Shown piece by piece: positions 1-58,479 of a stretch of 64,000 bases of DNA; within the stretch, counting starts at the first letter, position 1, and each line of letters opens with the position of its first letter. The stretch covers positions 2,271,747 through 2,335,746 of the forward strand of contig NC_079488.1 of assembly GCF_020520425.1 (NCBI RefSeq). Direction: 5' to 3'. Position numbers and translations under genes: made by a program. This DNA is from Spinacia oleracea (lineage: Eukaryota > Streptophyta > Magnoliopsida > Caryophyllales > Amaranthaceae). Under the pieces are notes generated by a model. It saw nothing but the letters and a program-made list of their open reading frames with translations. It searched no databases and was not told the origin of the DNA.

Positions 1-600
1 TCTTAAAATGCATGAGATCAAAAGCTTGATTATGTTGCATGATTAAGGATTTTAGTTCACTTAAAATCTAACCAACATAGTAAGAGCCTTAAGTTCCAAA
101 CTTAAAAATTGAGTTAAAAGGTGCCATGCCAAAATATACACTTGCTTGGATATCCTTTACATCAATCTAGTAATAGTTTTCGCTCAGCGAGGTGTTACTT
201 ATTGGTCCTAAAGGGGCAAGGTACACAAATAATTGTGAGTACATGTTAGTTTTGGTGAAACTCAACGATATAAGTAAGGAGTCCTTTTATGTCGTGGCAA
301 AATCGATAGGTTTACCTAATAAGTTCTTAGACGTACATATCAACCAAGAATAGTTTCTAGACTATTAGCAAAAGGCTTTTGCTTACCTAAGATGTTTTAG
401 GATTAAGTCGACAAACTGTGCTTAGTTCTTCAATGATTTTAGGATCTTGGAATCATTTTATTCACACCTGCCGGAACACATAACTTGAATAAAATGCTTA
501 ATAAACATTGAATTATGCATGTATGCTAGAATTTAAGTTTATTAAGAGAAACTGTGAATGGTTATTTATTTGTTTATTCTTTTCAATTGTAGTTTTTAAT
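1..600 (+). other. Copia-A 5' leader, 3' part only
   Basis: No gene. From about position 30 this stretch matches the reverse complement of about 54,160-54,740 (Copia-C leader) almost base for base. It also matches about 21,650-22,150 (Copia-B leader) with more differences. The first 30 or so bases differ from Copia-C. An open frame extends upstream of 601 without an ATG, so 601 is the likelier start. Confidence 0.85.
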
Positions 601-3600
601 ATGGCAAACAACAATTCATTCAACATTCGATCAATTCTCGAAAAGGAGAAGTTGAACGGGAAAAACTTCCTTGACTGGCAAAGGAACTTGCAAATAGTTC
701 TTATGCAGGAAGAAAAGGAGTATGTCCTAGATGAGGCGATGCCCGAAGCTCCAGGCGACGGGGTCACTCAGGCAGCCCTCAATCGTTGGATTGATGCCAA
801 CAAGGATGTGAAATGTCTAATGCTCGCCACCATGAGTGCGGATCTGCAGAAAACGTTCATCAACTCAGATGCTTTCACAATCATCAGTGAGTTGAAGAAC
901 ATGTTCCAAGATCTGGCTCGAGTCGAAAGATTCGAAACTCATAGGCAAATTCTTGAGACCAAGCTTAAGAAAGGCGAGCCCGTAAGTCCACATGTTCTCA
1001 AAATGATTGGACTCATTGAGAATATGAGTCGGCTGGATCAGCAATTTTCTCAGGAAATGGCTATAGACACCATCCTCCATTCTCTTCATAGCGGGTATGA
1101 TCAGTTCAAACTGAACTACAGTATGAATAGTCTGGACAAAACGCTCACTGAGCTTCACGGTATGCTGAAGACCGCTGAAAAGACGCTCAAAAGTGATAAG
1201 CAGGATGTGCTTATGGTGCGTGGGGGCAAGTTCAAGAAATCTGGAAAGAAGAGGAATGCTAAGAAAGGTGGCAACAAGGCCAGCCCAACTAAGCAAACTG
1301 GCGCCAAATCTGCAAAGAGAAAGGTCAGTCAACCCACTTCTGAATCCGAATGCTTCTACTGCAAGAAGAAGGGGCATTGGAAGAGAGATTGCTTGAAGCT
1401 AAAGGAAGATCAGAAGAACGGAACAGTCGTTCCATCTTCAGGTATTTTCGTTATAGACTGTATACTTGCTAATTCAACTTCTTGGGTATTAGATACAGGT
1501 TGTGGCTCACACTTATGTTCCAATCCACAGGGACTAAGAAGAAGTAGAAAGTTAAGCAAGGGTGAAGTCGACCTACGAGTGGGAAATGGAGCACGGATTG
1601 CTGCATTAGCTGTAGGAACTTACTATTTGTCGTTGCCCTCCGGGCTAGTTTTGGAACTGGAAGAATGTTTCCATGTTCCAAGTCTTACTAAAAACATCAT
1701 TTCAGTTTCTTGCTTAGATGCTAAGGGATTTTCTTTTATAATAAAAGACAATAGTTGTTCGTTTTATTTTAAAGAGATGTTTTATGGATCTGCTAGATTA
1801 GTCAATGGACTTTATTTATTAGATCACGACAAACAAGTATATAACGTAAATACCAAAAAGGCCAAAAAGGATGATTCAGATCTCACCTATCTGTGGCATT
1901 GTCGATTAGGCCATATAAACTTGAAACGCTTAGAAAGACTTCAAAGGGAAGGAATTCTAGAACCATTCGACTTAGAGGATTATGGTAAATGCGAATCATG
2001 TTTACTTGGCAAAATGACAAAGCAACCTTTCTCTAAAGTTGGAGAAAGAGCAAATGAACTATTGGGTTTAATCCATACAGATGTATGTGGACCAATGAGT
2101 ACAAATGCTAGAGGTGGTTTCAGCTACTTTATCACTTTCACTGATGACTTCACTAGGTATGGTTATGTCTACCTAATGAAGCATAAGTCTGAATCCTTTG
2201 ACAAATTCAAGGAATTTCAGAGTGAAGTAGAGAATCAATTAGGCAAGAAGATCAAGGCACTGCGGTCTGATAGAGGCGGTGAATATCTGAGCTATGAATT
2301 TGATGACCATCTGAAAGAATGTGGAATTCTATCAGAATTGACTCCTCCTGGAACACCACAATGGAACGGTGTGTCAGAACGGAGGAACAGAACCTTGCTA
2401 GACATGGTCAGGTCAATGATGGGTCAGGCCGAACTTCCATTAGAATTTTGGGGACATGCACTAAATACAGCTGCACTCACTATAAATAGAGCTCCGTCTA
2501 AAGCTGTCGAAAAGACTCCATACGAATTATGGTTTGGAAAGCCTCCAAATGTGTCTTTTCTTAAGATTTGGGGATGTGAAGTATACGTCAAACGATTAAT
2601 TTCAGACAAACTTCATCCAAAATCTGACAAATGTATCCTTGTGGGCTATCCAAAGGAAACAAAGGGGTATTACTTCTACAATACATCTGAGAACAAAGTG
2701 TTTGTTGCTCGAGATGGTGTCTTTTTGGAGAAGGATCACATTTCCAAAATGACAAGTGGGAGAAAAGTAGACCTCGAAGAAATTCGAGTCGAACAACAAA
2801 CTCTAGAGAATGCTCAAGATGACATTCAAGATGAAACTCAGAGATCTTTAGAAGAATCTGGTGAGAATCATGGTCAATCTAGAAATGTTACCCCGCGTAG
2901 ATCGCAAAGATATAGATCTCAACCGGAAAGGTACTTAGGTATTTTGACGAACGAGAGCTATGACGTTCTATTACTTGAAAGTGATGAACCTGCGACTTAC
3001 AAGCAAGCTATGACGAGCCCTAGCTCCAAGCAATGGCAAGAAGCCATGCAATCTGAATTAGACTCCATGTCTGAAAACCAAGTATGGGATTTGGTCGATT
3101 TGCCAGATGGCTACCAAGCCATTGGAAGCAAATGGGTTTTCAAACTGAAAAAGGACAAGGATGGGAAACTTGAAGTTTTCAAAGCTAGATTGGTTGCAAA
3201 AGGTTACAGGCAAGTCCACGGTGTGGATTACGATGAAACCTTTTCACCAGTTGCAATGCTAAAGTCTATTCGAATAATGTTAGCAATCGCTGCATATTAC
3301 GATTACGAAATATGGCAGATGGATGTCAAAACTGCTTTCTTAAACGGCGTTTTAACAGAAACTGTGTTTATGACACAGCCTGAAGGTTTTGAGGATCCAA
3401 AGAATGCTAAAAAGGTATGCAAGCTAAAGAAGTCAATCTACGGATTGAAGCAGGCATCCAGGAGCTGGAATATACGTTTTGATGAAGCAGTCAGTGACTT
3501 TGGTTTCATCAAGAACGCGGACGAATCTTGTGTATACAAGAAGGTCAGTGGGAGCAAAATTGCTTTCCTAGTATTATATGTCGACGACATATTGCTTATC

Positions 3601-4566
3601 GGAAATGACATTCCTATGTTGAACTCTGTCAAGATTTGGCTTGGGAAATGTTTTTCGATGAAGGATCTAGGAAAACCACAGTACATATTGGGCATCAAGA
3701 TTTACAGAGATAGATCTAAAAAGATGATTGGACTTAGTCAAAGCACTTATATCAATAAGGTGCTTGATAGGTTCAAGATGGCGGACTCCAAGCGAGGCTA
3801 CCTACCCATGTCTCATGGAATGACTCTAAGCAAGACTCAGTGCCCAAAAACACTTGATGAGCGTAGACGAATGAATGGGATTCCATATGCATCATTGATT
3901 GGTTCAATAATGTATGCTATGATATGTACACGCCCGGATGTTGCGTACGCACTCAGTGCTACGAGCAGATACCAGTCAGACCCAGGAGAGGCGCATTGGA
4001 CTGCTGCCAAGAATATTCTGAAGTACCTGAAAAGGCACAAAGATGACTTCCTGGTCTATGGTGGAGATGATGAATTAATTGTTAAAGGCTATACGGACGC
4101 AAGTTTCCAAACCGACAAAGATGATTTCAGATCACAGTCTGGGTTTGTCTTCTGCCTCAACGGAGGAGCAGTAAGCTGGAAAAGTGCTAAGCAAAGCACC
4201 ATTGCGGATTCTACAACTGAAGCGGAGTACATTGCTGCACATGAAGCAGCAAAGGAAGCTATATGGCTAAGGAAGTTCATAGGAGAACTAGGTGTAGTCC
4301 CCTCCATTAAAGGACCAATAGCCCTGTATTGTGATAATAACGGAGCTATTGCACAGGCAAAAGAGCCTAGACACCACCAGAGAGTCAAGCATGTACTTCG
4401 TAGATTTCACCTTCTACGAGAGTTCGTTGAAAGAAAAGAAGTCGAGATAAGCAAAATTGGAACTGATGACAACACATCAGATCCATTAACTAAACCTCTG
4501 CCGCAAGCGAAGCACAACTCGCACACTGCAGCTATGGGAATCAAGCATATTGGAGAATGGCTTTGA
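601..4566 (+). CDS. Intact copia gag-pol polyprotein
   Basis: A 1,321-residue polyprotein that would make the capsid, protease, integrase, reverse transcriptase and RNase H for cytoplasmic reverse transcription and nuclear integration. The gag domain fills about residues 1-240, with a zinc knuckle CX2CX4HX4C at C251, C254, H259, C264. The protease DTG is at D298. A GAG-pre-integrase HCRLGH motif follows. Integrase has D494, D557 and E593, with exactly 35 residues between the last two (DD35E). RT carries D908 and YVDD at 993-996; RNase H shows D1166, E1209 and D1245. The start is the ATG opening MANNNSF, also present in Copia-C. No stop or frameshift is seen, so it could be functional. Antisense and offset frames inside it are shadows. 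Confidence 0.96.
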   Translation: MANNNSFNIRSILEKEKLNGKNFLDWQRNLQIVLMQEEKEYVLDEAMPEAPGDGVTQAALNRWIDANKDVKCLMLATMSADLQKTFINSDAFTIISELKNMFQDLARVERFETHRQILETKLKKGEPVSPHVLKMIGLIENMSRLDQQFSQEMAIDTILHSLHSGYDQFKLNYSMNSLDKTLTELHGMLKTAEKTLKSDKQDVLMVRGGKFKKSGKKRNAKKGGNKASPTKQTGAKSAKRKVSQPTSESECFYCKKKGHWKRDCLKLKEDQKNGTVVPSSGIFVIDCILANSTSWVLDTGCGSHLCSNPQGLRRSRKLSKGEVDLRVGNGARIAALAVGTYYLSLPSGLVLELEECFHVPSLTKNIISVSCLDAKGFSFIIKDNSCSFYFKEMFYGSARLVNGLYLLDHDKQVYNVNTKKAKKDDSDLTYLWHCRLGHINLKRLERLQREGILEPFDLEDYGKCESCLLGKMTKQPFSKVGERANELLGLIHTDVCGPMSTNARGGFSYFITFTDDFTRYGYVYLMKHKSESFDKFKEFQSEVENQLGKKIKALRSDRGGEYLSYEFDDHLKECGILSELTPPGTPQWNGVSERRNRTLLDMVRSMMGQAELPLEFWGHALNTAALTINRAPSKAVEKTPYELWFGKPPNVSFLKIWGCEVYVKRLISDKLHPKSDKCILVGYPKETKGYYFYNTSENKVFVARDGVFLEKDHISKMTSGRKVDLEEIRVEQQTLENAQDDIQDETQRSLEESGENHGQSRNVTPRRSQRYRSQPERYLGILTNESYDVLLLESDEPATYKQAMTSPSSKQWQEAMQSELDSMSENQVWDLVDLPDGYQAIGSKWVFKLKKDKDGKLEVFKARLVAKGYRQVHGVDYDETFSPVAMLKSIRIMLAIAAYYDYEIWQMDVKTAFLNGVLTETVFMTQPEGFEDPKNAKKVCKLKKSIYGLKQASRSWNIRFDEAVSDFGFIKNADESCVYKKVSGSKIAFLVLYVDDILLIGNDIPMLNSVKIWLGKCFSMKDLGKPQYILGIKIYRDRSKKMIGLSQSTYINKVLDRFKMADSKRGYLPMSHGMTLSKTQCPKTLDERRRMNGIPYASLIGSIMYAMICTRPDVAYALSATSRYQSDPGEAHWTAAKNILKYLKRHKDDFLVYGGDDELIVKGYTDASFQTDKDDFRSQSGFVFCLNGGAVSWKSAKQSTIADSTTEAEYIAAHEAAKEAIWLRKFIGELGVVPSIKGPIALYCDNNGAIAQAKEPRHHQRVKHVLRRFHLLREFVERKEVEISKIGTDDNTSDPLTKPLPQAKHNSHTAAMGIKHIGEWL

Positions 4567-5430
4567 TGTCTCTGTTTAATGTTTTAAAGTTTTAGAGTTT
4601 AAATCTTTGTAAAACATTATTGGTTAATCATTCACAATAAATGAAAGGAATTCATTTTTCCATTTAATTTGTGGTTTATTAAATGATGAGTCCCTTCAAC
4701 TTGACGATATATTCAAGATAGACTGTCAGGACCAGTCCTGTGACTAAGAAATGTCTATCAAGTGAACTTGAATGTCAAAGGTTGAAAATGGTCCCTAATC
4801 GGAGTTTTCTATAAAATTGGACGCATAGAAAACGTTAGACGATTAGAATGCAAGATGACTAGTAGTTCTGTTTCTTGAACTATGTGGACATGGCAATGTC
4901 ATAATCATTTGCATAGATACTTACTTTGGGAAGACTAGTATCGGACAAGACCTATGAAACTTTACTGTAAGAGATGAAAGTCTGTCATAAGTAAATTTCA
5001 TTAAATTATTAGACACTAAATCCTCAATACCTGAGTGATTTGAGATTACTTGTTTGAGAACTGGTTGCTTTGACGTTGACCAACCGTCGCACCGTAAAAG
5101 GAGGCTATAAAGGCAACGCTCAGGTAATCACCTATCAAACGAAGTCTAATCTCAAGATCGCAAGATTGGGATTGTCCTCCCATAAATCGGGATGAGATGC
5201 TTAAAAGTTGTACAAGGCCACTCGGAGAGCTAGAAACTGTGAAATGCATGGCCGTGCTCGGATGAATCATAGGCTATGATTATCTGTTTATTTGATCAGT
5301 TGAACTCTGAAACCGAGGAACACCTCTGGACATAATAAGGATGACAACTCTTACCTTATGTTCAAGAGCAAGCATCGAGCGACAAAGGAATTAGGAAATG
5401 CACACTTGTCCCTAAGGACAAGTGGGAGAC
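4567..5430 (+). other. Copia-A 3' internal noncoding region
   Basis: About 0.86 kb between the gag-pol stop and the LTR, with no conserved sense frame. The region from about 4,655 is repeated in reverse at 7,670-8,437 (Copia-B) and 49,454-50,130 (Copia-C), with few differences. A 74-codon antisense frame is open in Copia-A and Copia-B but shifted in Copia-C, so I do not call it a gene. Confidence 0.85.
5403..5430 (+). promoter_or_regulatory. Polypurine tract preceded by a 9 bp perfect hairpin
   Basis: The stem CACTTGTCC / GGACAAGTG (5,403-5,411 and 5,416-5,424) closes a CTAA loop and runs straight into the purine tract GTGGGAGAC. The LTR begins immediately after, with TGAAGG. The polypurine tract primes plus-strand DNA synthesis. 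The same site is deleted in both Copia-B and Copia-C (see findings). Confidence 0.8.
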
Positions 5431-5744
5431 TGAAGGAAATAATGCCCTTGGTCCAAGTATGCATTCTATGTTAAGTCTAATAAATGCGGTTCAGTATTAA
5501 TTAACAAGTTAATAATTCAGTGAGATCAAGTGAGCTGAATGCCTAGCTAGAGGCCGCTTCAGTTCAAGTGGAATTAATGATATTAATCCACAGCTTACTC
5601 TTGACTGAACCCGTAGGGTCACACAAATAGTACGTAAACGGATCAAGTATTTAATGGCATTAAATACTCCATCTATGAATATTCGGAACCGACGGATCTT
5701 GGTTTCAGTGGGAGCTAAGATCGTCACAGGCAAGAAATGAATAC

Positions 5745-6075
5745 TCCGGAAACGATGATATTACCGGAAACGGAAATATGGATCGTATCGGAAATATGAA
5801 TATTATCCAAGTCGTAGATGTTGCCGGAAACGGAAACATGGTACGTATCGGAAAATATTATTGGAAATGGAAATATTACCAGAATCGGAAATATTGCCGG
5901 AAACGGAAATATTGTCAGAATCGGAAATATTACCGGAATCGGAAAATAATTCCGGAAACGGAAATATTAAATATTTGTTCGAAATGGAAATTAATTCCGG
6001 AATCGGAAATATTAAATATTGTTCGTATCGGAAATAAATTCCGGAACTGGAAATTTAATCGGAAGCGTATCGTAC
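5745..6075 (+). repeat. U3 array of CCGGAAAC/GGAAATATT repeats
   Basis: About twenty loosely repeated 10-14 bp units of the form CCGGAAACGGAAATATT or CCGGAATCGGAAATATT. Similar arrays sit at the same place in LTR-B (about 7,075-7,365), LTR-D (about 48,890-49,200) and LTR-E (about 58,045-58,360). The position upstream of the TATA box suggests an enhancer-like array; that role is inferred. Confidence 0.85.
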
Positions 6076-6084
6076 GAATTAGCA

Positions 6085-6298
6085 TCGGACGAGGCCTGCC
6101 GGACGAAGGCCCAGCACGAAGCCGGGCCATCGCCCAGCAAGCACGCGCGCCACAAGCCCAGCCAAGGCAGCGCCCAGGCCTACCGCAAGGCAGGCCCAGC
6201 GCGCGCCAAGGCCACGGATGCGTGGGCCGCGCTGCGTGGGCTGCTGCTCGCACGCGCATGGGCAGCCCTTGTGGCTGCCGTGTGTGTGTGAGTTTGTG
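6085..6298 (+). other. GC-rich block in the LTR U3
   Basis: An abrupt GC-rich island full of GCCCAGC, GGGCC and GCGCGC words inside an AT-rich LTR. Open frames cross it in several phases only because GC-rich DNA lacks stops. The matching blocks in the other LTRs share words but align poorly. Confidence 0.8.
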
Positions 6299-6446
6299 CT
6301 CATGCGTGATTCCTAAATCTACAAGAGTTAGTGTATGATTAAATTCCTATTCCTAATTAGATAAATTAATTAAATAGAATTCATGTAGGATTCTAATTTC
6401 AATTAATTCGTATCCTACTAGGATTACGATTCCTTTTCCATAACTC

Positions 6447-6454
6447 TATAAATA
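6447..6454 (+). promoter_or_regulatory. TATA box of LTR-A
   Basis: TATAAATA, followed about 30 bp later by the presumed transcription start. It is conserved as TTTATAG on the opposite strand in LTR-D (near 48,495) and LTR-E (near 57,675). It would drive the retrotransposon RNA, or in this 3' LTR read rightward into the inverted Copia-B. Confidence 0.75.
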
Positions 6455-6808
6455 AAGGCCTAGGGGTCATTATTTATACACAAGTTTTAAGTATTCAAAA
6501 CTAAGATTTTTAAGCAAAAAAAACAGCCAATATTCTTGCCTTTTTAACCGAAAATATTAGAACCTTAAGGGCGATTCTAGTTGGTCAATCTTAAGGCGGA
6601 TCCGGACGTGCTGTGGACTATCTACGGAGGGACGACACTTGGAGTCCTAAAGACTTGTTCTTGTTCGGTTCGGGCGCAGCTAGGGAAGGCACGCAACAAA
6701 GAGTATGCATCTAAACTATGCTAAATGATTATGTGTAAATAATATGTTTCCTGGCTTTATGGTTTTTCCGCATGATTTATGAACTGTCATATGAACCATA
6801 ACCTTACA

Positions 6809-7669
6809 CACAAACACACACACGCACGGCAGCCCACGAGGGGCGCCTATGCGCGCGCGGCCTGTGAGCTCGCAGCCCACGCCACGAGGCCCACACACTG
6901 CCGTGGCCTTAGCGCGCTGGGCCTGCCTTGCGGTGGGCCTGGACGCTGCCTTGGCTTGGGGCGTTTGTGGCGCGCTGGCTTGCTGGGCGATGGCCCGGCT
7001 TCGTGCTGGTCCTTCGTCCGGCAGGCCTCGTCCGATGCTTATTCGTACGATGCGCTTCTGATTAAATTCCCGGTTCCGGAATTCATTTCCGATACGAACA
7101 ATATTTAATATTTTCGATTCCGGAATTAATTTCCGTTTCGAACAAATATTTAATATTTCCGTTTCCGGAATTATTTTCCGATTCCGATAATATTTCCGAT
7201 TCTGACAATATTTCCGTTTTCGGCAATATTTCCATTTCCATTAATATTTTCCGATACGTACCATGTTTCCGTTTCCGGCAACATCTACGACTTGAATAAT
7301 ATTTATATTTGCGATACGATCCATATTTCCGTTTCTGGCAATATAATCGTTTTTCGGAGTATTCATTTCTTGCTTGTGACGATCTCAGCTCCCATTGAAA
7401 CCAAGATCCGTCGATTCCGAATATCCATAGATAGAGTATTTAATGTCATTAAATACTTGATCCGTTTACGTACTATTTGTGTGACCCTACGGGTTCAGTC
7501 AAGAGTAAGCTGTGGATTGATATCATTAATTCCACTTGAACTGAAGCGGCCTCTAGCTAGGCATTCAGCTCACTTGATCTCACTGAATTATTAACTTGTT
7601 AATTAATACTGAACCGCATTTATTAGACTTAATATTATATGCATACTTGGACCAAGGGCACTATTTCCT
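6809..7669 (-). repeat. LTR-B, partial 3' LTR of Copia-B
   Basis: Reverse complement of LTR-A from its GC block back to its first bases, including the CGGAAA array. It begins abruptly where LTR-A ends, within CACAAAC, and so lacks the R/U5 half. At 7,669 the last three LTR bases and the polypurine tract are missing: TATTTCCT runs directly into AGGGACAAG. Confidence 0.88.
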
Positions 7670-8437
7670 AGGGACAAGTGTGCATTACCTAATTCCTTTG
7701 TCGCTCGATGCTTGCTCTTGAACATAAGGTAAGAGTTGTCATCCTTATTATGTCCAGAGGTGTTTCTCGGTTTCAGAGTTCAACTGATCAAATAAAACAG
7801 ATAATCATAGCCTATGATTCATCTGAGCAAGGCCATGCATTTCACAGTTTCTAGCTCTCCGAGTGGCCTTGTACAACTTTTAAGCATCTCATCCCGATTT
7901 ATGGGAGGACAATCCCAATCTTGCGATCTTGAGATTAGACTTCGTTTGATAGGTGATTACCTGAGCGTTGCCTTTATAGCCTCCTTTTACGGTGCGACGG
8001 TTGGTCAACGTCAAAGTAACCAGTTCTCAAACAAGTAATCTCAAACCACTCAGGTATTGAGGATTTAGTGTCTAATAATTTTAATGAAATTTACTTATGA
8101 CGGATTTTCATCTCTTACAGTAAAGTTTCATAGGTCTGTCCGATACTAGTCTTCCCAAAGTAAGTATCTATGCAAATGATTACGACATTGCCATGTCCAC
8201 ATAGTTCAAGAAACAGAACTACTAGTCATCTTGCATTCTAGTCGTCTAACGTTTTCTATGCGTCCAATTTTATAGAAAACTCCGACCAGGGACCATTTTC
8301 AACTTTTGACATTCAAGTTCACTTGATAGACATTTCTTAGTCACAGGACTGGTCCTGGCAGTCTATCTTGAATATATATCGTCAAATTTGAAGGGACTCA
8401 TCATTTAATACTAAACCAAGATTAAATGGAATATGAA

Positions 8438-11280
8438 AATACATTTCATAGATGATAAATGTTCAACCCTAATGTTTTACAACCATGGGCCTCGAACCCA
8501 TCTTTAAAACAGTTCATGGAATTCAAAGCTATGCTTGATTTCCAGTACCACAATGTGAGTGTTGTTTCTCACTTGTTGCATAGGTTTAGTTATCATGCTT
8601 TGCCAATCTTAACATCCTTTTCATCGAATGTTCTTCGAGATATGATGATAAGATCTTTTGAGTTTGTTTATTATGTGATCTAGTCTTTCTTACTTCAATA
8701 TTGGTTCAACGCATTTTTCAATGAAGAACCATTAAGTTAACAGACATGTGATCTACCCAAGTTCAATGAAGAACTCTTTAACATAAACAACCCTATTTAA
8801 TTGCTTCTTAGGCAATAAGTACTTTTACTTCAACTGTTTAGGTTGCTAGTGATGCTTTGTTTGGATTTACTTATCCAAGCAGTTCACAGATATGTGGAAG
8901 ACTTTCCAGTTGTATCTTAGAACATAGAAATTAATATTTAATTTCCCACGCAACAACTCATGGTCTCCAATCCATGTTGCCATTTCAAAACACGATGCTC
9001 TATAGCTCGTCCTTGTCAATGGTTAACTCCAAAGGGATCTTGCTTGATCCTTTGCCAGTGTTTATGCGTGTAGCATCAAAGTTTAGCATATCTTTATTTC
9101 CTTGAATCAAGAACTAATCCTATCTACCTTTTCAAGTACCATAAGTTTTTCTTGATCTCAATCTAGTTGATCTTTACTTAGATCAATATAGATTGGTATA
9201 TGTTTGATGGTTTTTGTCCTTAAAACCAACTTGCAACCAATAGGTGTGAAACTATTCTTGCAAATCAACAAAATTTCTATTTTGTCATCAAAATATTGAG
9301 TATGTTTTATGGCCTCTAACCATCTAAAACATTTGAGTCTATATATGGCCTCTAACCATTTTAGGGAATCTAGGTTTCGTCATAGCTTTCTTACAAGTCA
9401 CAAACTCATTAATCTATATGATAATAGTTTGACTGCAAGTTGTAGGTTTCTTCACTATCTAATAGAAGAATCTCATAGTTTCATTGACCTGAACTCTATG
9501 TTTCTTCACTATCTAATAGAAGAATCTCATAGTTTCAGTGACTTGAACTCCATGCCTACTTGGGTATAGAACATTAAACAATAGAATATTAATAGCCACT
9601 TGAAAGTCCTTTGAATATTCTGTTCTCCTTGAAGCACTTGTAAAGTCTTCTAACAGATGTCTATTCTTTAAAGACACTTCTAAAGTCCTTAAAGAATAAG
9701 TTCGGATTTTCTGAAGCACTTCGAAAAGCCTCCGGAATGTCCGTTTATGTTTGTTGTTCGCCTCGAAGACTTTCGAGGTCTATTTTCTCCCACTTGTTAT
9801 TTTGGAAACGAATCTCCAAAAGGACATTATTTCGAGCAAACAAACATTATGTTCTCAAAAATTCGTGGTAGAAACAATACCCGTGTGTCTCATTTGAATA
9901 AATCACAATGAAACGTATATCTATACTTGGGCCTTAGTTTGTCGAATGACAAACACTAAGCTCCCACTGAGTTTAGCAACTCTCTAGATATATATTATGA
10001 AAATATATTCTGAAATTACTTTTCAATAGCTTTGACGAATTTGGTTTAGTTTGGTGGAAGTTGAGCATTTTGTTTTAGAAATTATAGGAAAAGTCTTTAT
10101 GATTCATCATTAATCGAATCAAGTATTAATTGACTTCGATTATTCCAACTTAGATATGCCATATCTTATGGAGTTAGATCGTGAAATTACAACACACAAT
10201 CATTGATGATCATTTTTGGTCTCAAGTAATCATTAACATGATCTAACCTAGATCTTTATGATTTCTTGCCAAGTGAATTTTATACTTCTGATTCTTTGAA
10301 CTAGCCAAACAGATTCAAACTTATATCACATTGAGTAAATAAACCAAAATTCACTCAAATCCAGGTGATATAACAAAGTCATAAAATATTTCTTTAGCTT
10401 TGAACTCTATTGTCTAGGCGTTCTAACAATAGTTCATATCTTTTGTTACTTTCAACAAGTAAGACTAGCTCGTCTTAAATGATCTAGAAATCAATCAAAT
10501 TTCAAAAGTCCATCAAAATAGAGCTTATGAATGTTAACTAGCTTGTTGATATGGTCTAAGCAACAATGCCAAAGATTATTGGAACTCAAATCAAGGGTTT
10601 GATTTGAACCTAGTAAAGTTTTTAAAGAGTTGTTTGTTTTTAATCAAGCATATTGACTCAACAAGTAAATCACCATTTCATTCAAATAAACAAACAAACA
10701 AGCATTGTTTTTGTTCTTCTGAATGTGAGTCTTTTCTGTGTTTGAAGCAGAAATTTAGGTATGCTGATTATGGAACAAAATAGCCATTAAGTTCCAGCCT
10801 TGAAAGGACTTAAAACAAACTAGACGACCCTACAACTAATGTAGCAATGCCATGCTTCATTTCCCACTTGTAGGTCATTAGTGTAGCCTAGCTTCCGTTG
10901 TTTGAGTTATTACCGAAGTAAGATCCTCAAGCGGTATATGATACCAAGGAAGTTTGATTGCCAGGTCACTTCTCTTTAAACATTAACTTTTAGGTAGAAA
11001 CGGAATTGTAAATTCCTTTCACTTGTTCCTTGTTTTCCTATTTCTTGTACCCTTTCTTATAGCCTTAAGAATTGAATTCTCTAGCGTTGGCTTTTATACT
11101 TTGTTTAGACATGTCCAATGTCACTCCAACAAAGTTCTTACCATTTTAATTTATGTTGAATATTTTATTTCAACTAGATGATCTTACCAGAAGCTTCTAA
11201 AGTTCTCTAAGCATCGATCTATTCGAATGTCTAGGGACTAGACTCATTCGAGAATTAAATGGGAAAAAGATTTTAGGTTG
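8438..11280 (-). pseudogene. Decayed copia gag-pol relic of Copia-B
   Basis: No long frame survives. Patches match copia coding sequence in the right order on the minus strand. Around 9,780-9,890 is the integrase C-terminal segment that reads GYYFYN...FLEK in Copia-A. Around 9,220-9,240 is a GCKLVL stretch like the start of RT. Around 10,820-10,890 is a protease-region match. The relic is shorter (about 2.8 kb against 4 kb) and riddled with stops, frameshifts and small tandem duplications, for example a roughly 54 bp unit repeated twice near 9,440-9,545. Confidence 0.65.
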
Positions 11281-11285
11281 TTAAC

Positions 11286-14062
11286 TGTAACACCCCGACA
11301 ATTCTCTCTTTTCTAAAAGAACATTTTAATATAAAACGTAGAGAATTATCAAGGCATTATCGCCCGTGTGAAAACATAACGGCTTATTCAGAATTTTGCA
11401 GCGGAAAACATAAAACTAACTGTAGGTTTATAAATAATCATTTTCAGAATAAATCCCAAAAACCAATCAACGAAAAACAAAGTTAATGTTACTAATTCAA
11501 TAAGTTTTAGAGTCCACTTAAACAAACCAAATCCAACTTAGAAAATCAAATGAACTACAAGCTCTCTAATCCCGATCCCAATGATGCATCATCTTCAAAC
11601 CTGTAGATGGGCAACGCTTATTGATCCTTAGAGACTGCTCACCAAAGATGGGTCATCACAGGATCAATAAGGCATAGCCATGATCAACACACACAAACAA
11701 AGCACGTAATCAGCAAAGCTGAGTACTACATACTAAAGCAATAATAATCCTAACATGATACTATTAAACATAATTAAGGGCAGACAAAGCATGATAATCT
11801 GACGACCATACTTAACTAGACTAGGCTAGACTGGACTAGACTTTTATAACAATAATATTATTTTAATTGAAATAGGCAATGGACCGAGTTTTCTAGCTAG
11901 ACGAGGTACGGGCGCGACTCCGTAACCTCAGTGACCTGCGATATCGAGGAACGTTTGACTGAAAATAGGACGCGGTGATCAATCCGGTCCGAATGAAAGG
12001 CCATGGGCTACCACCATGAACCCCAACTCATGTTTGTCCGTCACTTTAGACGTGCACAGTCTAAAGCTATTGCTACTCAGTTTCACTTTACATGATTTAC
12101 AAATTGACACCCTGTTATGACTCAACAATCACATAAGGCATGCAACTCACATTTATTTATAACTGTTTTTATCTTGGAATTGAGTAAGTGATCACAGAGG
12201 CATCAAACAAGACTCATTCCAATTAACTCCAATCTTTTCTCTAATACTGATCAACCCCTGTATATGGGTATAAGGTTTCAACTTACTAAATGAGGTCCTC
12301 CGCCCTCATAAAGTAGTGAAAAGCTAAAAGGGAACAACAATTAACTGATCTGAATTATATACTAAATAATCTAGTGTTCCCAATCAAACATGTTTGCATC
12401 AATCTTCCATACTAACATGTTACAATTCTCATAATGCAATATAAGTTCAATATGTCCGTCCAACAATATTAAACATGCAATTTCAACCTAACCGAGTTCG
12501 TCAATAATATCAACATAACTAAGTTCAACAACAATCTCAACACAACCAAGTTCACCAACAAGTTCAACATGGTTTCAACAATTAGCACACATTCCAAGCA
12601 CACAGGTATGTACGTACCTTGTGTAAACAACTGATAGGGCACTTTAACATTTTCAAAAGTCGCCTAAAGAGAATTCTCCGCCTAAAACAACCAACAAGTA
12701 ATCCCAATCAATTTCTAATCATTGGCAACCATAATAAAGCATTCTAAATGCATCCTAAACATATTTAGAACTTTCCCCAATATCAAAACTTGAATATTTG
12801 ATTTCCTAGCATCATATATATCGAATTAGTGATTGAAATTCGTTGAAAACTCTTTGCAAACATCGTACTTTAAATTTTCAGCAATATAAACTCGTTTAAA
12901 ACTTCACCAAGGCCAATTTACATTCCTAGTACATCGAGACAATAAATTCAATAATCCACCATTGTCCTACCATGATTTACAACCATTTAAACCTTGAAAT
13001 TCATACTTTAAATAATCAAAAATCAATATTTCAATGTATTTAGATAATCTGAAAAATAAATATATTGTTTAAACATAATATATAAATCTGAAATTCCAAT
13101 TAAGTCATAAAAATTACAAATTTATTAAATCAAAGCATAAATCAAATTAAAAAAATATAATTAAAATAATTAGTTTACTTAGGGTTTAAGAAATAACCAA
13201 GAAGGATTCAAGGAGATGCTGGCCGGCGGAGCACAGGCGCGGCAGCGGTGGAACGACGGCAAGGAGGGGCACGACGGCGCACCGGTGGTGGTGGTTGGCT
13301 GCCGCAACAACATAAACTGGTGAGAACTGAGAAAGGAGAACGAAAGAGAGCAAGACACAAAATAGAAAGACGAGAAGGCTACCGTACAAAGGTCGCCGTC
13401 AGGCGACGGCAAGGTGGCTGTGCTGGCGGCGAGTACGGCGGCGGGCTGTACGAAAATAGAAAAGAAATTGAGGAGAGCAATACTCGAAGCAACGTGAGAA
13501 GAAGAACAAAAGGAAAAACAAAGAAGGAATAGTGAGGGAGGAGAACGACGAAGAAGAAGGTCGAAGAAGAGGGGGAGCAAGCTAACCGGCGGCGACTGGT
13601 CCGGCGGTGGTGGCGGCTGAGCTTGGAGGCAACGTGAGGGAGGAGGAGTTCTTGAGGGTTTGCTTTTTACGTGAGATTGAAGGAGGGAGTTTGGTTGTTT
13701 TTTTTTTTTTTTTTGTTTTACGTATTGTTGAAAGAGAAGGGAGTAGGGTAGTTTGGGTTTATGGGTTTATAATATTGGGCTTTGTCCAATTGGGCTAGAC
13801 TTAGGAATTTAGCTTTAGGATTTGAATCCAAAACCGAATAGGATCGTTTTCTAAATTCAATCAATTTTCGTAATTCAAATTACTTTCAACTTAAAATTCT
13901 AAAATCATTTTCGATTTCGTAAATCGTTGAAAATATTAAAAAGTAATAAATAAATATGCGTTAATTATATATTTATTTCCAAAATTCATAAATTCTTATT
14001 TAAATATATTAAATATACGTTAAAATATATAAATGAAATGTATAAAATTACGGGGGATTACA
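11286..14062 (-). repeat. Gypsy 3' LTR (2,777 bp)
   Basis: On the plus strand it runs from TGTAACACCCCGAC to GGGGGATTACA; in element direction it is TGTAATCCCC...GGGGTGTTACA. It matches 18,506-21,283. Visible differences are one base near 11,721, one near 12,029, and the T-run near 13,700. A GC-rich segment at 13,200-13,650 keeps open frames on both strands (133 codons minus, 94 plus). Their low-complexity Ser/Leu and Arg/Gly content argues against a protein. Confidence 0.93.
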
Positions 14063-14080
14063 ATCTACCCCTCTTAAAAG
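14063..14080 (-). promoter_or_regulatory. Gypsy polypurine tract
   Basis: On the minus strand it reads TTTTAAGAGGGGTAGAT directly before the LTR start TGTAATCC. A purine-rich run in this place primes plus-strand synthesis in LTR elements. Confidence 0.75.
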
Positions 14081-14347
14081 AAGTTTCGTCCCGAAACTTG
14101 ACACGAAAATTCACATATCTTTCCAAACTTTTCAACTTATTCTTATTGTAGAAGTACTTTGTGCCACTCTTGTGCACTCTTTTGCCAACTTAAAGTTGCT
14201 TGTGTTATTCATGAACACCTTTTTCTTATGCGGAGAATCTATTTACTTTGCATGAACATGTATAAGTTGCTAAAAATGAGCGTACAATGCATAAAATTGC
14301 TATAAAAATAGGTAAAAAGCGCGAATTTCTATCGCATTCTACCCCTC

Positions 14348-14662
14348 TTAAAGAAAACGAGTTACGCCCCCGTAACTCATTTCAGGGAATTCTATCCCCA
14401 ATACAATATTTCCCCTAAAATCATTCCAGCATGTAGGACTCCTACAATTCTTTCCATACAACGCCTTAAAAGGTGTAATCTTAATTCTCGCATGGTAACT
14501 ATTATTGCGCGAAAATTCAATCAAATCTAGATGGTTTAGCAACTGCCCTTTAAAGTCAATAGCACAGGCTCTCAACATATCTTCCATGGTTTGGTTAGTC
14601 CTCTCAGGCTGACCATCGGTTGCAGGGTGGAAAGCAATACTCATTTTCAATGTCGTCCCCAA
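14348..14662 (-). pseudogene. Gypsy integrase fragment
   Basis: 104 codons with the integrase core segment FHPATDGQPERTNQTMEDML, including the glutamate of the DDE triad (the E of PERTNQ), then YGKNCRSP. Upstream integrase parts and a recognisable chromodomain are not seen. It belongs to the broken pol of the gypsy element and is not expressed as a full protein. Confidence 0.85.
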
Positions 14663-15379
14663 GATTCAACTGGACCTTACTGCCAAAATTTCAAACTTTT
14701 GTGCTCGGCAAGGATCTTACATGTTTCCCTATAAAGGTAATGTCTCCAAATATTCACAGATAACACGATAGCAGTTAGCTTTAGGTCATGGGTAGGGTAA
14801 TTAGCCTTATAAGGTTTCAATTGATGCGACAACAGGTGCGAAGGTTACACGCTCCTTTAAAACCTAGAAAGCTTTTTCACATTTCTCACTTCACTTGAAT
14901 TTCGATTCTTTTTTCAACAAGTTGGTCATTGGTTTTGCTTTCTTCGAAAAGTCTTTCACAACTTCCTATAATAGTCGTCTAGGCTTAGAGAACTTCAAAT
15001 ATCGGACACGTTCTTTGGAGTAGGTCACTCAGTCACAACTTGAATCTTAGTAGGATCTACAGAAACGCTTTCTGCTCACTTTTTCTTTTTTTTGTTTTTT
15101 TTTTTTTTTTTTTTACCGAACCTCATCACGCCTTTCATGGATGTATAACTCTTGGGATTAACTCTTAGCTCTTTCACCAATTCGTATATTTCCCATCTTT
15201 TCAAGACAACAAATGATTTCTAACGACCCTGGACCACTCGAATCTTCTCTTAATTTTATTCCCTTAAGTAACGTAGTTTTCAATCAATTTAGTCTTCACT
15301 TTTCCGTCGGTGTCACTTATACACACGTGACTTCAAGATTTGTATACTTCATTCACATAACACTAGATTCTTTCTAAGA
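14663..15379 (-). pseudogene. Degraded gypsy RNase H / integrase spacer
   Basis: No open frame. It lies between the RT and integrase pieces and is too short to hold full RNase H plus the integrase N-terminus, so internal deletions are likely. It includes a T-rich run at 15,085-15,114. Confidence 0.5.
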
Positions 15380-16125
15380 GTCTCCAAAACAATCCTCAAG
15401 TGTTTGTCATGCTCTTTCTCATTCCTTGGATAAATCAGGATATCATCAATATAATAACGAACTTAATTCGGAATTCGTGGAAAATCTTATTCATCAAATC
15501 CATAATTATGGCAGGTGCATTGTTTAACCCAAAAGACATTATTCTAAACCCATAATGACAATAACGAGTCCTAATGAGGTCTTAGGCCCTTATCAGCTAT
15601 CCTTAATTGGTGATACTTCAAACACAACTCAGTCTTCGAGAACACACTCGCCTAATTCAATTGATCCAATATGTCATCTATCCTAGGCAAAGGGTACTTG
15701 TTCTTGATGGTGTTTAGCTCCCTAAAATCGATGCATAATTCCATACTCTTATCTTTCTCCTTAACAAACAACACAGGATCTCCCCACGGTGATGCACTAG
15801 GCCTAATATGCCCCTTAACAAAACAACTCTTGCAATTGTGTCTTAATTTGCTCATTTTGAGAGGTGTCATTCTATATGGTGCTTTAGTTATAGGTGTCGT
15901 TCCAGGAACTAAGTTTATAGTGAACTCAAAGGCTCCAACAGGTAACATACTTGCAATTTCACTCGGAAACACATCAATGAATCCACTCACAATGGCAACA
16001 TCCTTGATTTCCACTCCAACTTCTTTACCCACCTCTAACACACTACAGAAAAATAGTTCACACTCCTTATTCATCAAGTCCTCACTTGCATTACAGCAAT
16101 AACTAAAGGTTCTTGGACTTCTCAA
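15380..16125 (-). pseudogene. Gypsy protease-RT boundary and reverse transcriptase, frameshifted
   Basis: An open frame at 15,652-16,125 carries the canonical gypsy RT entry: [13 protein letters not shown], then [19 protein letters not shown], then LCIDFRELN and [14 protein letters not shown]. Further along, at about 15,430-15,560, in shifted frames, are SFGLNNAPA (the MPFGLTNAPA segment) and YIDDIL, the catalytic motif. The domain is recognisable but broken by frameshifts. Confidence 0.85.
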
Positions 16126-16414
16126 AACATTTATAGGAGGTCAATCTCCCAACATGGTTCTTTAAATTTACTTTCTGAATTTCACAGTACGTCCATCTTA
16201 GCCTTGTACAAACTTAGCCAATCCCATCCTAAGGTTTATGAATTATTGTGCATTTTGCTTTCTCATTAAAGGAGTTTCCTTAAGGCAGTAACAAACGAAT
16301 CCCAATTGAATCTCTCAACAGCGCTAAGTCTAACCCCATTTCCTCTCCACCACAAATCAACTTCATCTTCTAAGTACAGTACAACTTGACCCGCTCTTAT
16401 GTTCTCAAGACAGT

Positions 16415-16615
16415 TCACATCCCAAACAGTTTCTCAAACTCTCTAACCCAGTTCTCTAAAAAGGTAGGATCAGCTTGCCTCTTTAAGTATGGTGACTTAA
16501 CTTTGGCTAGTCTCTCAAGCATGTCTCCAGCAGAATCGGGACGCTCAGTCCTCTCTTGTGTCAGTTTTTCCGCCAAGAGGCGAATAGCAACAACTAAGTC
16601 ATTATTGTTGGTCAT
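16415..16615 (-). pseudogene. Gypsy gag N-terminal fragment
   Basis: 66 codons ending in DPTFLENWVREFEKLFGM, which resembles the conserved start of plant gypsy gag (a D-P...W...E-K-F pattern). The rest of gag, the zinc knuckle and the protease are not seen before the RT fragment, so about 1 kb or more is missing. Confidence 0.7.
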
Positions 16616-16622
16616 TCTATAA

Positions 16623-18488
16623 CATGGCCTGAAGTTAATATACTCTATCTTAGGTTCTAAACCTCACTCACATGTCATTCTATATCAAGCAATATTTGAT
16701 TTGACCATAGAGATCGCCTCAATAAACAATATTCACATAAAATCTTTTACGAAGGTGCAACAATCATTGCAAAATAATTCTCCTCTATCATTTGCGAACG
16801 ACATTCACATAAAGGACATCCGATCGAGGGAAACAAATCAAATTCAATCATCACAAATAATAATAATAAAAGAAATATTCCTCTTCGCGTGCCCAAACTA
16901 AATCATTGACCACTTGGATAATTAAATATTTAACTTTAATTCCTCAAAAGAAACTTGTATTTCCTAAAGAAAATTTTATTCCTCAAAACAATATTAATAA
17001 CAATTTCTAAACCATAATAACGTACTTGTCCTCAAAATAAAATAAAGGTTCTATGACATAAATATAAACTACCGCTGGGCGAATTATGGAATTCTCAAAT
17101 TGGAAACGAATACTTTAACTTTTATTGCTAATTCTATAAAGGTTTATTACATCCTTGAAAAGAATAAACAATAACTCGATCTCATATTACTTTAACTTTA
17201 AACTGTTATAGCTTTGCTACTTATTCTTTAAAACATAAAGGAACTAACTAACTATTACAACTTCAAACGTTTAAGGCATCTTGCCTATCTGCTCTTTCCT
17301 TGGAAACTTGTGGAGTGAAATCTAGATTTTCAGTATTCGTTGAACTCTTCCTCCGGGTCCGAATCCTCTTTCACACCTTACCAGTGATCTCAATGGTAGG
17401 CTCATAGGTCTTTGGGTTAGGATTTTCTGCCTCAACCTCTACATTCTCGTCCTCAACGGCTACATCATTTTCCTCTAGATCATTATTTACACCAACTCCT
17501 ATAGGTTCCTCTATAACGGCATCCCAAGCATGATTCCCTATGTCTTTACCCTTATTAATCCACTTTCTGCTACCTCAATAGTGGTGGTCATAATCTCTGA
17601 GTCGCATCTCGAACTACCATCCTAGTCCCATGCTTAGCCGAATTTGGTGTTCCATAATGAGAATGCATGTCTTTAAACATATCTTTGAGTCCTAGGTATG
17701 ACATTTGGTTAGGTAAGCAATGAACAATAGTGGATTCTATGATATCTTTTCTCATTAAGGTGGGTTGGTCTTGTATCTTAGCAAAATAATCATATCCAAA
17801 CACGACTTGGAATCCTATGGTGGTGTACTTGGAAAGCCACATTTTATTCCTAAAAGAAACAACTTAAAGTCTCACTAACAATTTCCCAACCAAACCATAA
17901 CCAAAGTTCAATAAAACGATAAGTTTGTTGGAATCAAACAATTTCTATGCACATTTAAATGCAACACTTAAACATTTAGCATATGCACGTAACAATTAAC
18001 TTCTTATGCTAGCAATTAACTACTAATGCACATATAATTCTATCCTATATGCCCTTTCCTATATTACCCATCTCTCATAATAAATCATAATAGGTCAAAC
18101 ATTAAAGAATTTTAAAGAATAAAATAAGAAAATTTAGTAAATTTTTTTTTTTATTATTAAACGAATAAATAAAGAACTTTTTTATTTTTTATTTTTTTTT
18201 TATTTTTTTATTTTTTTTTATATGTATATATTTCGGATATATTTAATTAAATTCGAAAAGAAAAAGAACGTACTTAATTCGAATAAACGCAAAGTTTAAA
18301 ATAAATAAGTTAATTTCGAACTTAAATAAGAAATATTAATATACTTTCAAACAAATAAAATTAATTTGGTCCCCCAAAAAAAAGTACCAATTTTTGAACA
18401 CTATAATACGTAGAAGCTCGATTTTTAAGAAATTGATTTTAAATTACTAGATAGTTAGGCGCCTAAAATTTATTAAAGTAAAACCTTA
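16623..18488 (-). other. Gypsy 5' internal region without clear coding
   Basis: AT-rich DNA between the primer site and the gag fragment. A minus-strand frame of 84 codons (17,588-17,842) shows no family I recognise. A low-complexity T/A tract lies at 18,140-18,235. This may be leader or degraded gag. Confidence 0.5.
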
Positions 18489-18505
18489 GCTTCTAGATAC
18501 CACTT
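18489..18505 (-). promoter_or_regulatory. Gypsy primer-binding site
   Basis: On the minus strand, AAGTGGTATCTAGAAGC follows the LTR end TGTTACA. TGGTATC matches the start of the plant initiator-Met-tRNA site (TGGTATCAGAGC), with later differences. Confidence 0.75.
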
Positions 18506-21283
18506 TGTAACACCCCGACAATTCTCTCTTTTCTAAAAGAACATTTTAATATAAAACGTAGAGAATTATCAAGGCATTATCGCCCGTGTGAAAACATAAC
18601 GGCTTATTCAGAATTTTGCAGCGGAAAACATAAAACTAACTGTAGGTTTATAAATAATCATTTTCAGAATAAATCCCAAAAACCAATCAACGAAAAACAA
18701 AGTTAATGTTACTAATTCAATAAGTTTTAGAGTCCACTTAAACAAACCAAATCCAACTTAGAAAATCAAATGAACTACAAGCTCTCTAATCCCGATCCCA
18801 ATGATGCATCATCTTCAAACCTGTAGATGGGCAACGCTTATTGATCCTTAGAGACTGCTCACCAAAGATGGGTCATCACAGGATCAATAAGGCATAGCCA
18901 TGATCAACACACACAAACAAAGCACGTAATCAGCAAAGCTGGGTACTACATACTAAAGCAATAATAATCCTAACATGATACTATTAAACATAATTAAGGG
19001 CAGACAAAGCATGATAATCTGACGACCATACTTAACTAGACTAGGCTAGACTGGACTAGACTTTTATAACAATAATATTATTTTAATTGAAATAGGCAAT
19101 GGACCGAGTTTTCTAGCTAGACGAGGTACGGGCGCGACTCCGTAACCTCAGTGACCTGCGATATCGAGGAACGTTTGACTGAAAATAGGACGCGGTGATC
19201 AATCCGGTCCGAATGAAAGGCCATGGGCTACCACCATGAACCCCAACTCCTGTTTGTCCGTCACTTTAGACGTGCACAGTCTAAAGCTATTGCTACTCAG
19301 TTTCACTTTACATGATTTACAAATTGACACCCTGTTATGACTCAACAATCACATAAGGCATGCAACTCACATTTATTTATAACTGTTTTTATCTTGGAAT
19401 TGAGTAAGTGATCACAGAGGCATCAAACAAGACTCATTCCAATTAACTCCAATCTTTTCTCTAATACTGATCAACCCCTGTATATGGGTATAAGGTTTCA
19501 ACTTACTAAATGAGGTCCTCCGCCCTCATAAAGTAGTGAAAAGCTAAAAGGGAACAACAATTAACTGATCTGAATTATATACTAAATAATCTAGTGTTCC
19601 CAATCAAACATGTTTGCATCAATCTTCCATACTAACATGTTACAATTCTCATAATGCAATATAAGTTCAATATGTCCGTCCAACAATATTAAACATGCAA
19701 TTTCAACCTAACCGAGTTCGTCAATAATATCAACATAACTAAGTTCAACAACAATCTCAACACAACCAAGTTCACCAACAAGTTCAACATGGTTTCAACA
19801 ATTAGCACACATTCCAAGCACACAGGTATGTACGTACCTTGTGTAAACAACTGATAGGGCACTTTAACATTTTCAAAAGTCGCCTAAAGAGAATTCTCCG
19901 CCTAAAACAACCAACAAGTAATCCCAATCAATTTCTAATCATTGGCAACCATAATAAAGCATTCTAAATGCATCCTAAACATATTTAGAACTTTCCCCAA
20001 TATCAAAACTTGAATATTTGATTTCCTAGCATCATATATATCGAATTAGTGATTGAAATTCGTTGAAAACTCTTTGCAAACATCGTACTTTAAATTTTCA
20101 GCAATATAAACTCGTTTAAAACTTCACCAAGGCCAATTTACATTCCTAGTACATCGAGACAATAAATTCAATAATCCACCATTGTCCTACCATGATTTAC
20201 AACCATTTAAACCTTGAAATTCATACTTTAAATAATCAAAAATCAATATTTCAATGTATTTAGATAATCTGAAAAATAAATATATTGTTTAAACATAATA
20301 TATAAATCTGAAATTCCAATTAAGTCATAAAAATTACAAATTTATTAAATCAAAGCATAAATCAAATTAAAAAAATATAATTAAAATAATTAGTTTACTT
20401 AGGGTTTAAGAAATAACCAAGAAGGATTCAAGGAGATGCTGGCCGGCGGAGCACAGGCGCGGCAGCGGTGGAACGACGGCAAGGAGGGGCACGACGGCGC
20501 ACCGGTGGTGGTGGTTGGCTGCCGCAACAACATAAACTGGTGAGAACTGAGAAAGGAGAACGAAAGAGAGCAAGACACAAAATAGAAAGACGAGAAGGCT
20601 ACCGTACAAAGGTCGCCGTCAGGCGACGGCAAGGTGGCTGTGCTGGCGGCGAGTACGGCGGCGGGCTGTACGAAAATAGAAAAGAAATTGAGGAGAGCAA
20701 TACTCGAAGCAACGTGAGAAGAAGAACAAAAGGAAAAACAAAGAAGGAATAGTGAGGGAGGAGAACGACGAAGAAGAAGGTCGAAGAAGAGGGGGAGCAA
20801 GCTAACCGGCGGCGACTGGTCCGGCGGTGGTGGCGGCTGAGCTTGGAGGCAACGTGAGGGAGGAGGAGTTCTTGAGGGTTTGCTTTTTACGTGAGATTGA
20901 AGGAGGGAGTTTGGTTGTTTTTTTGTTTTTTTTTTGTTTTACGTATTGTTGAAAGAGAAGGGAGTAGGGTAGTTTGGGTTTATGGGTTTATAATATTGGG
21001 CTTTGTCCAATTGGGCTAGACTTAGGAATTTAGCTTTAGGATTTGAATCCAAAACCGAATAGGATCGTTTTCTAAATTCAATCAATTTTCGTAATTCAAA
21101 TTACTTTCAACTTAAAATTCTAAAATCATTTTCGATTTCGTAAATCGTTGAAAATATTAAAAAGTAATAAATAAATATGCGTTAATTATATATTTATTTC
21201 CAAAATTCATAAATTCTTATTTAAATATATTAAATATACGTTAAAATATATAAATGAAATGTATAAAATTACGGGGGATTACA
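18506..21283 (-). repeat. Gypsy 5' LTR (2,778 bp)
   Basis: Near-perfect copy of 11,286-14,062, including the GC-rich segment (20,420-20,870) and both of its open frames. As the upstream LTR in element direction it would hold the promoter. Confidence 0.93.
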
Positions 21284-21288
21284 ATAAC

Positions 21289-34741: not shown

Positions 34742-34748
34742 TACATAT

Positions 34749-58461: not shown

Positions 58462-58479
58462 CACTACTACAAAAATAGG

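What the first reader, a model, noticed from the sequence alone, without database searches (positions are those of the whole stretch)
4655..8437. 1.6 kb inverted repeat of copia 3' ends: candidate hairpin-RNA (Mu killer-like) silencing locus
The arms 4,655-6,298 and 6,809-8,437 are near-identical in reverse, with a 510 bp spacer holding the rest of LTR-A. A transcript reading from Copia-A through its 3' LTR, or one starting at the TATA box at 6,447 and meeting a Copia-A transcript, could give long double-stranded RNA against the 3' noncoding region and U3. Maize Mu killer silences MuDR by the same geometry. An intact-looking family member (Copia-A) sits in the same locus.
Basis: partly seen in the sequence, partly recalled or inferred. 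Interest (0 to 1): 0.7.

Follow-up and report, generated by a model that had tools for sequence, protein, structure and literature searches.

The report
Retrotransposon inserted backwards into a relative
The long inverted repeat is what is left where one young copia retrotransposon jumped, in the opposite direction, into the terminal repeat of an older relative; such self-nesting is common among the copies sampled in this plant genome, and nothing here shows that it works as a silencing locus.

Summary
It is a nested insertion: Copia-A (10,496 bp) lies in the 3' LTR of an opposite-oriented relative, B. The rest of B's LTR precedes A's 5' LTR, outside the window, and both ends carry the duplication CACAA. 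It is no inverted duplication: A's arm is 99.6-99.8% identical to three other copies, B's 91.5-91.6% to the same copies. The geometry is frequent: of 30 other elements sampled, 11 abut family sequence, 8 inverted; two have ~1.4-kb arms about 84-88 bp apart. RNA crossing both arms could fold, but no 5' LTR of B was found, and copies with identical LTRs (6 of 7 clear pairs) post-date A. A Mu killer-like role is untested and not favoured. Antisense self-nesting as a possible hairpin source is already in print (PMC11624286, passages seen). B's decayed interior is high-copy.

The parts
1..6808 (+). Copia-A, part inside the window (whole element C2:2268059-2278554, 10,496 bp; its 5' LTR C2:2268059-2269436 is outside the window)
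   Evidence: LTRs 3 substitutions in 1,378
505..4566 (+). gag-pol open frame of Copia-A (stop to stop); gag, zinc knuckle, integrase, RVT_2 domains
4567..5430 (+). 3' untranslated region of A with polypurine tract just before 5,431; about half of arm 1
5431..6808 (+). 3' LTR of A (TG...CA); TATAAATA at 6,447, AATAAA at 6,451 (the latter read from the sequence)
4607..6298 (+). arm 1 of the inverted repeat
6299..6808 (+). spacer: distal part of A's 3' LTR, with its TATA box
6809..6813 (.). 3' copy of the 5-bp target-site duplication CACAA (the 5' copy lies just before C2:2268059)
6809..8482 (-). arm 2 of the inverted repeat
6809..7669 (-). right piece of element B's 3' LTR (the left piece, about 517 bp, is at C2:2267542-2268058, outside the window); the polypurine tract and first LTR bases fall in a 20-base gap relative to A
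7670..8482 (-). 3' untranslated region of element B
8483..11285 (-). decayed copia coding region of B; at least 39 further places in the genome match most or part of it
11286..21285 (.). separate 10-kb insertion in B with 2.78-kb direct terminal repeats, 99.9% identical
21643..23789 (-). leader of a minus-strand family element, taken as B's from order and orientation; breaks off at 23,789, no 5' LTR found after it

Best explanation
The inverted repeat is a by-product of nested retrotransposition. Copia-A inserted, in opposite orientation, into the 3' LTR of B, an older family member with a decayed coding region, splitting that LTR at the position equivalent to A's 6,298. This placed A's 3' UTR + U3 and B's U3 + 3' UTR in inverted orientation around the distal part of A's LTR. 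Shown: structure, target-site duplication, both halves of the split LTR, relative identities. Inferred: no dedicated function. If any RNA is made across it, the likeliest is (i) rare read-through of A past its own LTR terminator or (ii) antisense RNA started at A's 3' LTR promoter, which would feed the general silencing of a high-copy family together with similar nests elsewhere, not act as a master switch.
For: A's 5' LTR is preceded by AACACAA and its 3' LTR followed by CACAAAC. The left flank holds B's missing LTR part, inverted: BLAST matches L009 4,059-3,547 to LTR positions 864-1374 of A at 85.7%, while arm 2 matches LTR positions 4-868; the 5-base overlap is the duplication. Joined flanks align across the junction with A's LTR. 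A's LTRs differ at 3 of 1,378 sites, about 84,000 years at the rate of 1.3e-8 used in PMC6337768 (passage seen). A's arm is 99.6-99.8% identical to the same region of loci L012, L014 and L042, B's arm 91.5-91.6% to these, so the arms come from separate insertions. Of 38 other LTRs (30 elements), 14 abut family sequence: 10 inverted, 4 same way; by element 11 of 30, 8 inverted. A second inverted nest, C in D, lies at 47,807-49,457 of this window.
Against: No RNA or small-RNA data were available, so 'no dedicated function' is inference. B's own target-site duplication cannot be checked because its 5' end was not found. Assigning the leader 21,643-23,789 to B rests on orientation and order only. 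The survey took the best-scoring LTRs, not a random sample. That the junction occurs once in the genome could not be searched.
Confidence: 0.93

Rival explanations
1. A Mu killer-like locus: RNA crossing the junction forms a 1.6-kb hairpin that is diced into siRNAs and silences the copia family in trans.
For: Long duplex potential on both strands; 20 perfect runs of at least 24 bases; A's arm covers 3' UTR and U3 and is 99.6-99.8% identical in three other copies; an antisense self-nested EVD found in one silenced Arabidopsis individual was proposed as an LTR-hairpin source (PMC11624286, passages seen).
Against: No 5' LTR of B found (other promoters were not scanned for); A's RNA should stop inside its own LTR (inference); inverted pairs about as long and tighter at other loci; family members with identical LTRs inserted after A. 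The EVD authors did not test their locus and note that hairpins generally give several siRNA sizes while theirs were mainly 24 nt.
Confidence: 0.05
2. Trans dsRNA rather than a hairpin: A's 3' LTR promoter (TATA 6,447) drives rightward RNA through arm 2, antisense to family mRNAs, which pairs with them and adds to their silencing.
For: TATAAATA at 6,447 pointing right and arm 2 directly downstream. In Mu killer, silencing plants made short antisense transcripts, and the authors proposed these as the agent while allowing that longer transcripts may also contribute (PMC3440606, passages seen).
Against: A family member whose 3' LTR faces an inverted copy elsewhere could do the same; no transcript evidence.
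Confidence: 0.15
3. The inverted repeat arose by inverted duplication of one element's end, as in Mu killer.
For: Inverted geometry alone.
Against: Target-site duplication and split LTR; A's arm is far closer to unlinked copies than to arm B.
Confidence: 0.01
4. An assembly artefact joining two repeats.
For: Highly repetitive family (3,322 candidate places, 40 of them scored).
Against: Exact 5-bp duplication and base-exact split of B's LTR on both sides of a full-length element.
Confidence: 0.02

Closest known systems
Antisense nested insertion of the copia element EVD into itself, Arabidopsis rdr6-EVD individual #5 (PMC11624286, passages seen)
   Same: A copia element inserted in opposite orientation in its own family, giving inverted LTRs that could form LTR hairpins or convergent dsRNA
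   Different: [quoted passage not shown] here an older insertion in a large genome with other such nests, the target being a decayed relative and the insertion inside its LTR. The paper did not test whether its locus made siRNAs
LTR-retrotransposon autoinsertions (Jedlicka et al. 2019, PMC6911290, passages seen)
   Same: A younger element nested in an older copy of the same family; a 5-bp duplication, the commonest kind in most families of that study
   Different: They find LTRs and coding regions not commonly targeted and 3' UTRs preferred; here the target is an LTR. Spinach is not named in the passages I saw
Mu killer of maize (PMC3440606; PMC2725412; passages seen)
   Same: Inverted transposon sequences of kilobase length able to give fold-back RNA
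   Different: DNA transposon, partial inverted duplication of one element, shown to silence in trans; here two separate retrotransposon insertions and no silencing shown

Membership tests
Nested LTR-retrotransposon autoinsertion | Complete inserted element with both LTRs | tested here: met
   C2:2268059-2278554, LTRs 1,378 bp, 3 substitutions
Nested LTR-retrotransposon autoinsertion | Target-site duplication | tested here: met
   CACAA on both sides
Nested LTR-retrotransposon autoinsertion | Target sequence continues on the far side | tested here: met
   The two pieces of B's LTR, joined, align through the junction with A's LTR
Nested LTR-retrotransposon autoinsertion | Target belongs to the same family | tested here: met
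   3' UTR 92-99% and the LTR part in the window 86-98% identical in 200-base steps, the other LTR half 85.7%; coding region decayed
Mu killer-type hairpin silencing locus | Inverted duplication of one element | tested here: not met
   Arms from separate insertions
Mu killer-type hairpin silencing locus | Transcript able to fold back | tested here: inconclusive
   The sequence could fold; transcription not testable
Mu killer-type hairpin silencing locus | Dominant silencing in trans, siRNAs | not testable with these tools
   No RNA data; identical-LTR family members post-dating A speak against a lasting effect
Ty1/copia retrotransposon (element A) | gag, zinc knuckle, integrase before reverse transcriptase in one frame | tested here: met
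   Pfam order Retrotran_gag_2, zf-CCHC, Pol_BBD, gag_pre-integrs, rve, SH3_retrovirus, RVT_2
Non-autonomous LTR retrotransposon (element B) | Multi-copy unit without working coding frames but with family termini | tested here: inconclusive
   Interior matched at 39 further places, 93-96% (40 rows besides the window's own, one a second piece of the same copy), coding decayed; the junction of interior and ends in other copies could not be searched

The most novel reading that the evidence does not exclude
Inverted self-nesting is a dispersed, self-generated brake on bursts: as a family fills its own copies, inverted pairs of its ends accumulate (8 of 30 sampled elements abut inverted family sequence here) and together supply dsRNA against the family's U3 and 3' UTR, this locus being one of many small contributors.
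Probability: 0.08. Interest if true: 0.6.

Novelty: new member of a known kind. Interest (0 to 1): 0.2.

Why it matters
It shows how easily an inverted repeat of transposon ends in a large plant genome can be read as a silencing locus, and that the flanks of the inserted element settle the origin. Collectively such nests are a testable source of LTR dsRNA, a question left open for EVD (PMC11624286).

Tried and rejected
Inverted duplication and assembly artefact were rejected on the target-site duplication, the split LTR and the relative identities. Heavy C-to-T decay in arm B as a trace of methylation: weak (31 C>T/G>A against 25 T>C/A>G where A and L012 agree). B's 5' LTR between 21,286 and 46,500: none found with A's LTR and C's 5' LTR as queries, E up to 1e-3. 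Rfam at gathering thresholds and a tRNA scan of the window: nothing. The far end of the CACTA-like element that starts at 58,462: not in the window at up to 2 mismatches. Literature: (spinach, small RNA, LTR retrotransposon, 24-nt, siRNA; at least 4 of 5 terms; 8 of 114 papers listed) listed none that holds the word spinach; brought up PMC11624286 as the direct precedent; one search found only PMC6911290. In one search my filter missed L043 because its inverted repeat is reported as one palindromic match; one search showed it, so 7 rather than 6 of 38 loci carry inverted arms of at least 200 bp.

Full report
What is there. Arms 4,655-6,298 and 6,809-8,437 align with 1,536 matches, 66 mismatches and 19 indels; BLASTN extends them to 4,607-6,298 and 6,809-8,482 at 91.6%. 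The spacer is the distal part of the 3' LTR of Copia-A, which runs from 5,431 to 6,808. A's frame 505-4,566 carries gag, zinc knuckle, integrase and reverse transcriptase in copia order.

Where it lies. The window is C2:2271747-2335746 of an assembly of 894 Mb in 242 contigs. Six contigs of 115-189 Mb and the sequence style suggest spinach; that name is recalled and comes from no call.

How it arose. A's 5' LTR lies outside the window at C2:2268059-2269436 and matches the 3' LTR except for 3 of 1,378 bases. The bases before it read AACACAA; the bases after the 3' LTR read CACAAAC: a 5-bp target-site duplication, CACAA. Before the 5' LTR lies, inverted, the LTR part that arm 2 lacks: BLAST matches L009 4,059-3,547 to LTR positions 864-1374 of A at 85.7% (in the sequence the piece starts at about 3,543), while arm 2 matches LTR positions 4-868. 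The overlap of five positions is the duplication. Joining the flanks with one copy of the duplication gives a stretch that aligns with A's LTR across the junction. So A inserted into the 3' LTR of a minus-strand relative, B, and the inverted repeat followed.

Not an inverted duplication. Of the four loci printed, three carry the whole arm in a young copy (L012, L014, L042): A's arm is 99.6-99.8% identical to these, B's arm 91.5-91.6%, the same as to A; in the fourth, L013, the LTR part gives 99.8% for A and 90.7% for B. Other family pieces in the flanks of L013, L014 and L042 give 93.3-96.8% against A and 91.3-96.8% against B over their longer matches (for example 96.1% and 96.8% over the 3' UTR piece of L042). 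Arms copied from each other would be closest to each other.

What B is. B's coding region is decayed: two short protein matches to A's gag-pol were found at E up to 0.01 (open pieces), and one 160-base DNA match at 82%. Relative to A it lacks the polypurine tract and the first LTR bases in one 20-base gap. A 10-kb element with 99.9% identical 2.78-kb terminal repeats lies in it. The leader taken as B's stops at 23,789 and no LTR was found after it. B's decayed interior is nonetheless high-copy: besides the window's own, one search lists 40 further matches (39 places, one in two pieces) at 93-96% identity, only 40 of 11,327 candidates being scored; except for the window's own and that second piece, they end at about window 9,200, so they share only part of the query. 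B therefore looks like a member of a multiplied family that lacks coding capacity but keeps family ends. I could not search the junction between that interior and the 3' UTR in other copies.

How frequent is the geometry. From the 41 matches I dropped A's two LTRs and one 43-bp fragment and fetched all other 38 LTRs with about 2.5 kb on each side; they are the best-scoring ones (40 scored of 3,322 candidates), not a random sample. They fall into 30 elements, counting eight LTR pairs once (one pair, L039/L040, is not a clean pair, and L039 and L041 look like lone LTRs). Fourteen of 38 LTRs have family sequence within 15 bases of their outer edge, 10 inverted and 4 in the same direction; by element 11 of 30, 8 inverted and 3 same-way (classification first). 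L014, at 20 bases and same-way, is not counted. The other 19 of 30 elements (L014 among them) show none within 15 bases. Inverted arms of at least 200 bp within these 6.4-kb loci occur in 7 of 38 (6, plus L043), that is 6 of 30 elements. L010 and L043 have LTR arms of about 1.4 kb only about 84-88 bp apart. The window holds a second case: element C (minus strand, 3' LTR ending near 48,141) lies in an inverted LTR fragment, 47,807-48,140, giving 277-bp arms at 93.9%.

Could it silence. In silico, RNA of either strand over 4,655-8,437 pairs arm to arm almost throughout (1,561 and 1,552 inter-arm pairs). That follows from the sequence and says nothing about transcription. A's own RNA should start in the 5' LTR and end in the 3' LTR: a TATA box at 6,447 and AATAAA at 6,451 are seen; that RNA ends before 6,808 is inference from LTR biology. 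Read-through would be needed to enter arm 2. RNA starting at the 3' LTR promoter would contain arm 2 only and could pair with family mRNA in trans. No 5' LTR of B was found; other promoters were not scanned for. On the evolutionary side, A's LTRs differ at 3 sites, about 84,000 years at 1.3e-8 (rate as used in PMC6337768, passage seen). Among the sampled elements 7 clear LTR pairs, each with matching 5-base flanks, were compared: 6 are identical and one differs at 2 sites; the unclear pair differs at 2. So copies more than 99% identical to A's LTR kept inserting after A did, although the counts are small, the sample favours young copies, and all 38 belong to a sub-lineage 7-8 substitutions from A's 5' LTR. 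This speaks against an effective, lasting brake from this locus; it does not exclude a recent or partial one.

Compared with what is known. Self-nesting ('autoinsertion') is described for plant LTR retrotransposons, with 5-bp duplications dominant in most families and LTRs not commonly the target (PMC6911290, passages seen). An antisense nested insertion of the copia element EVD in itself has been proposed, untested, as a source of LTR hairpins (PMC11624286, passages seen). Mu killer is a partial inverted duplication of MuDR, and later work tied its silencing to short antisense transcripts rather than to read-through from a flanking gene, without ruling out longer transcripts (PMC3440606, passages seen; also PMC2725412, passages seen). 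The locus is thus a new member of a known kind. The idea that such nests might make hairpins is already in print and stays open.

Verdict. The cause is ordinary nested insertion, well supported. The silencing role is possible but neither shown nor favoured for this locus in particular.

Noticed in passing
8483-11285 (minus strand): Decayed copia interior of B is matched at 39 further places at 93-96% identity, nearly all ending at about window 9,200, while B's 3' UTR is 92-99% identical to A's: looks like a high-copy non-autonomous partner of the autonomous family.
   Followed up: partly
47807-58461: Element C, minus strand, nested in an inverted LTR fragment (47,807-48,140); lacks the polypurine tract and start of its 3' LTR (deletion at 49,455-49,457); gag-pol interrupted by a stop.
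   Followed up: partly
49455-54731 versus 24-5301; 57310-58461 versus 48139-49301: C's interior is 98.7% identical to A's, yet the LTR at its 5' side and its 3' LTR are only 85% alike; mosaic origin or unequal LTR change not resolved.
   Followed up: no
58462: CACTA-like transposon end (CACTACTACAAAAATAGG; the label is recalled) cuts C's 5' LTR; the other end was not found in the window.
   Followed up: partly
11286-21285: 10-kb element with 2.78-kb direct terminal repeats differing by 2 mismatches and one gap: very young insertion.
   Followed up: no
32518-33011 and 34249-34742: 494-bp direct repeats, 99% identical, about 1.2 kb apart: perhaps the LTRs of a short element.
   Followed up: no
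37376-38704: 442-codon open frame with a KIB1-4 beta-propeller domain, the only likely host gene among the frames scanned.
   Followed up: no
56810-57178: Self-inverted 369-bp stretch (76%) within C's leader, MITE-like.
   Followed up: no
L010 and L043: Near head-to-head LTR palindromes, about 1.4-kb arms with spacers of about 84-88 bp: tighter hairpin candidates than the window's locus.
   Followed up: partly
L039 and L040: An LTR flanked on both sides by the same gag-pol site with repeat AGTCT, and a second LTR flanked by the same site 9 kb away: perhaps LTR-LTR recombination.
   Followed up: no
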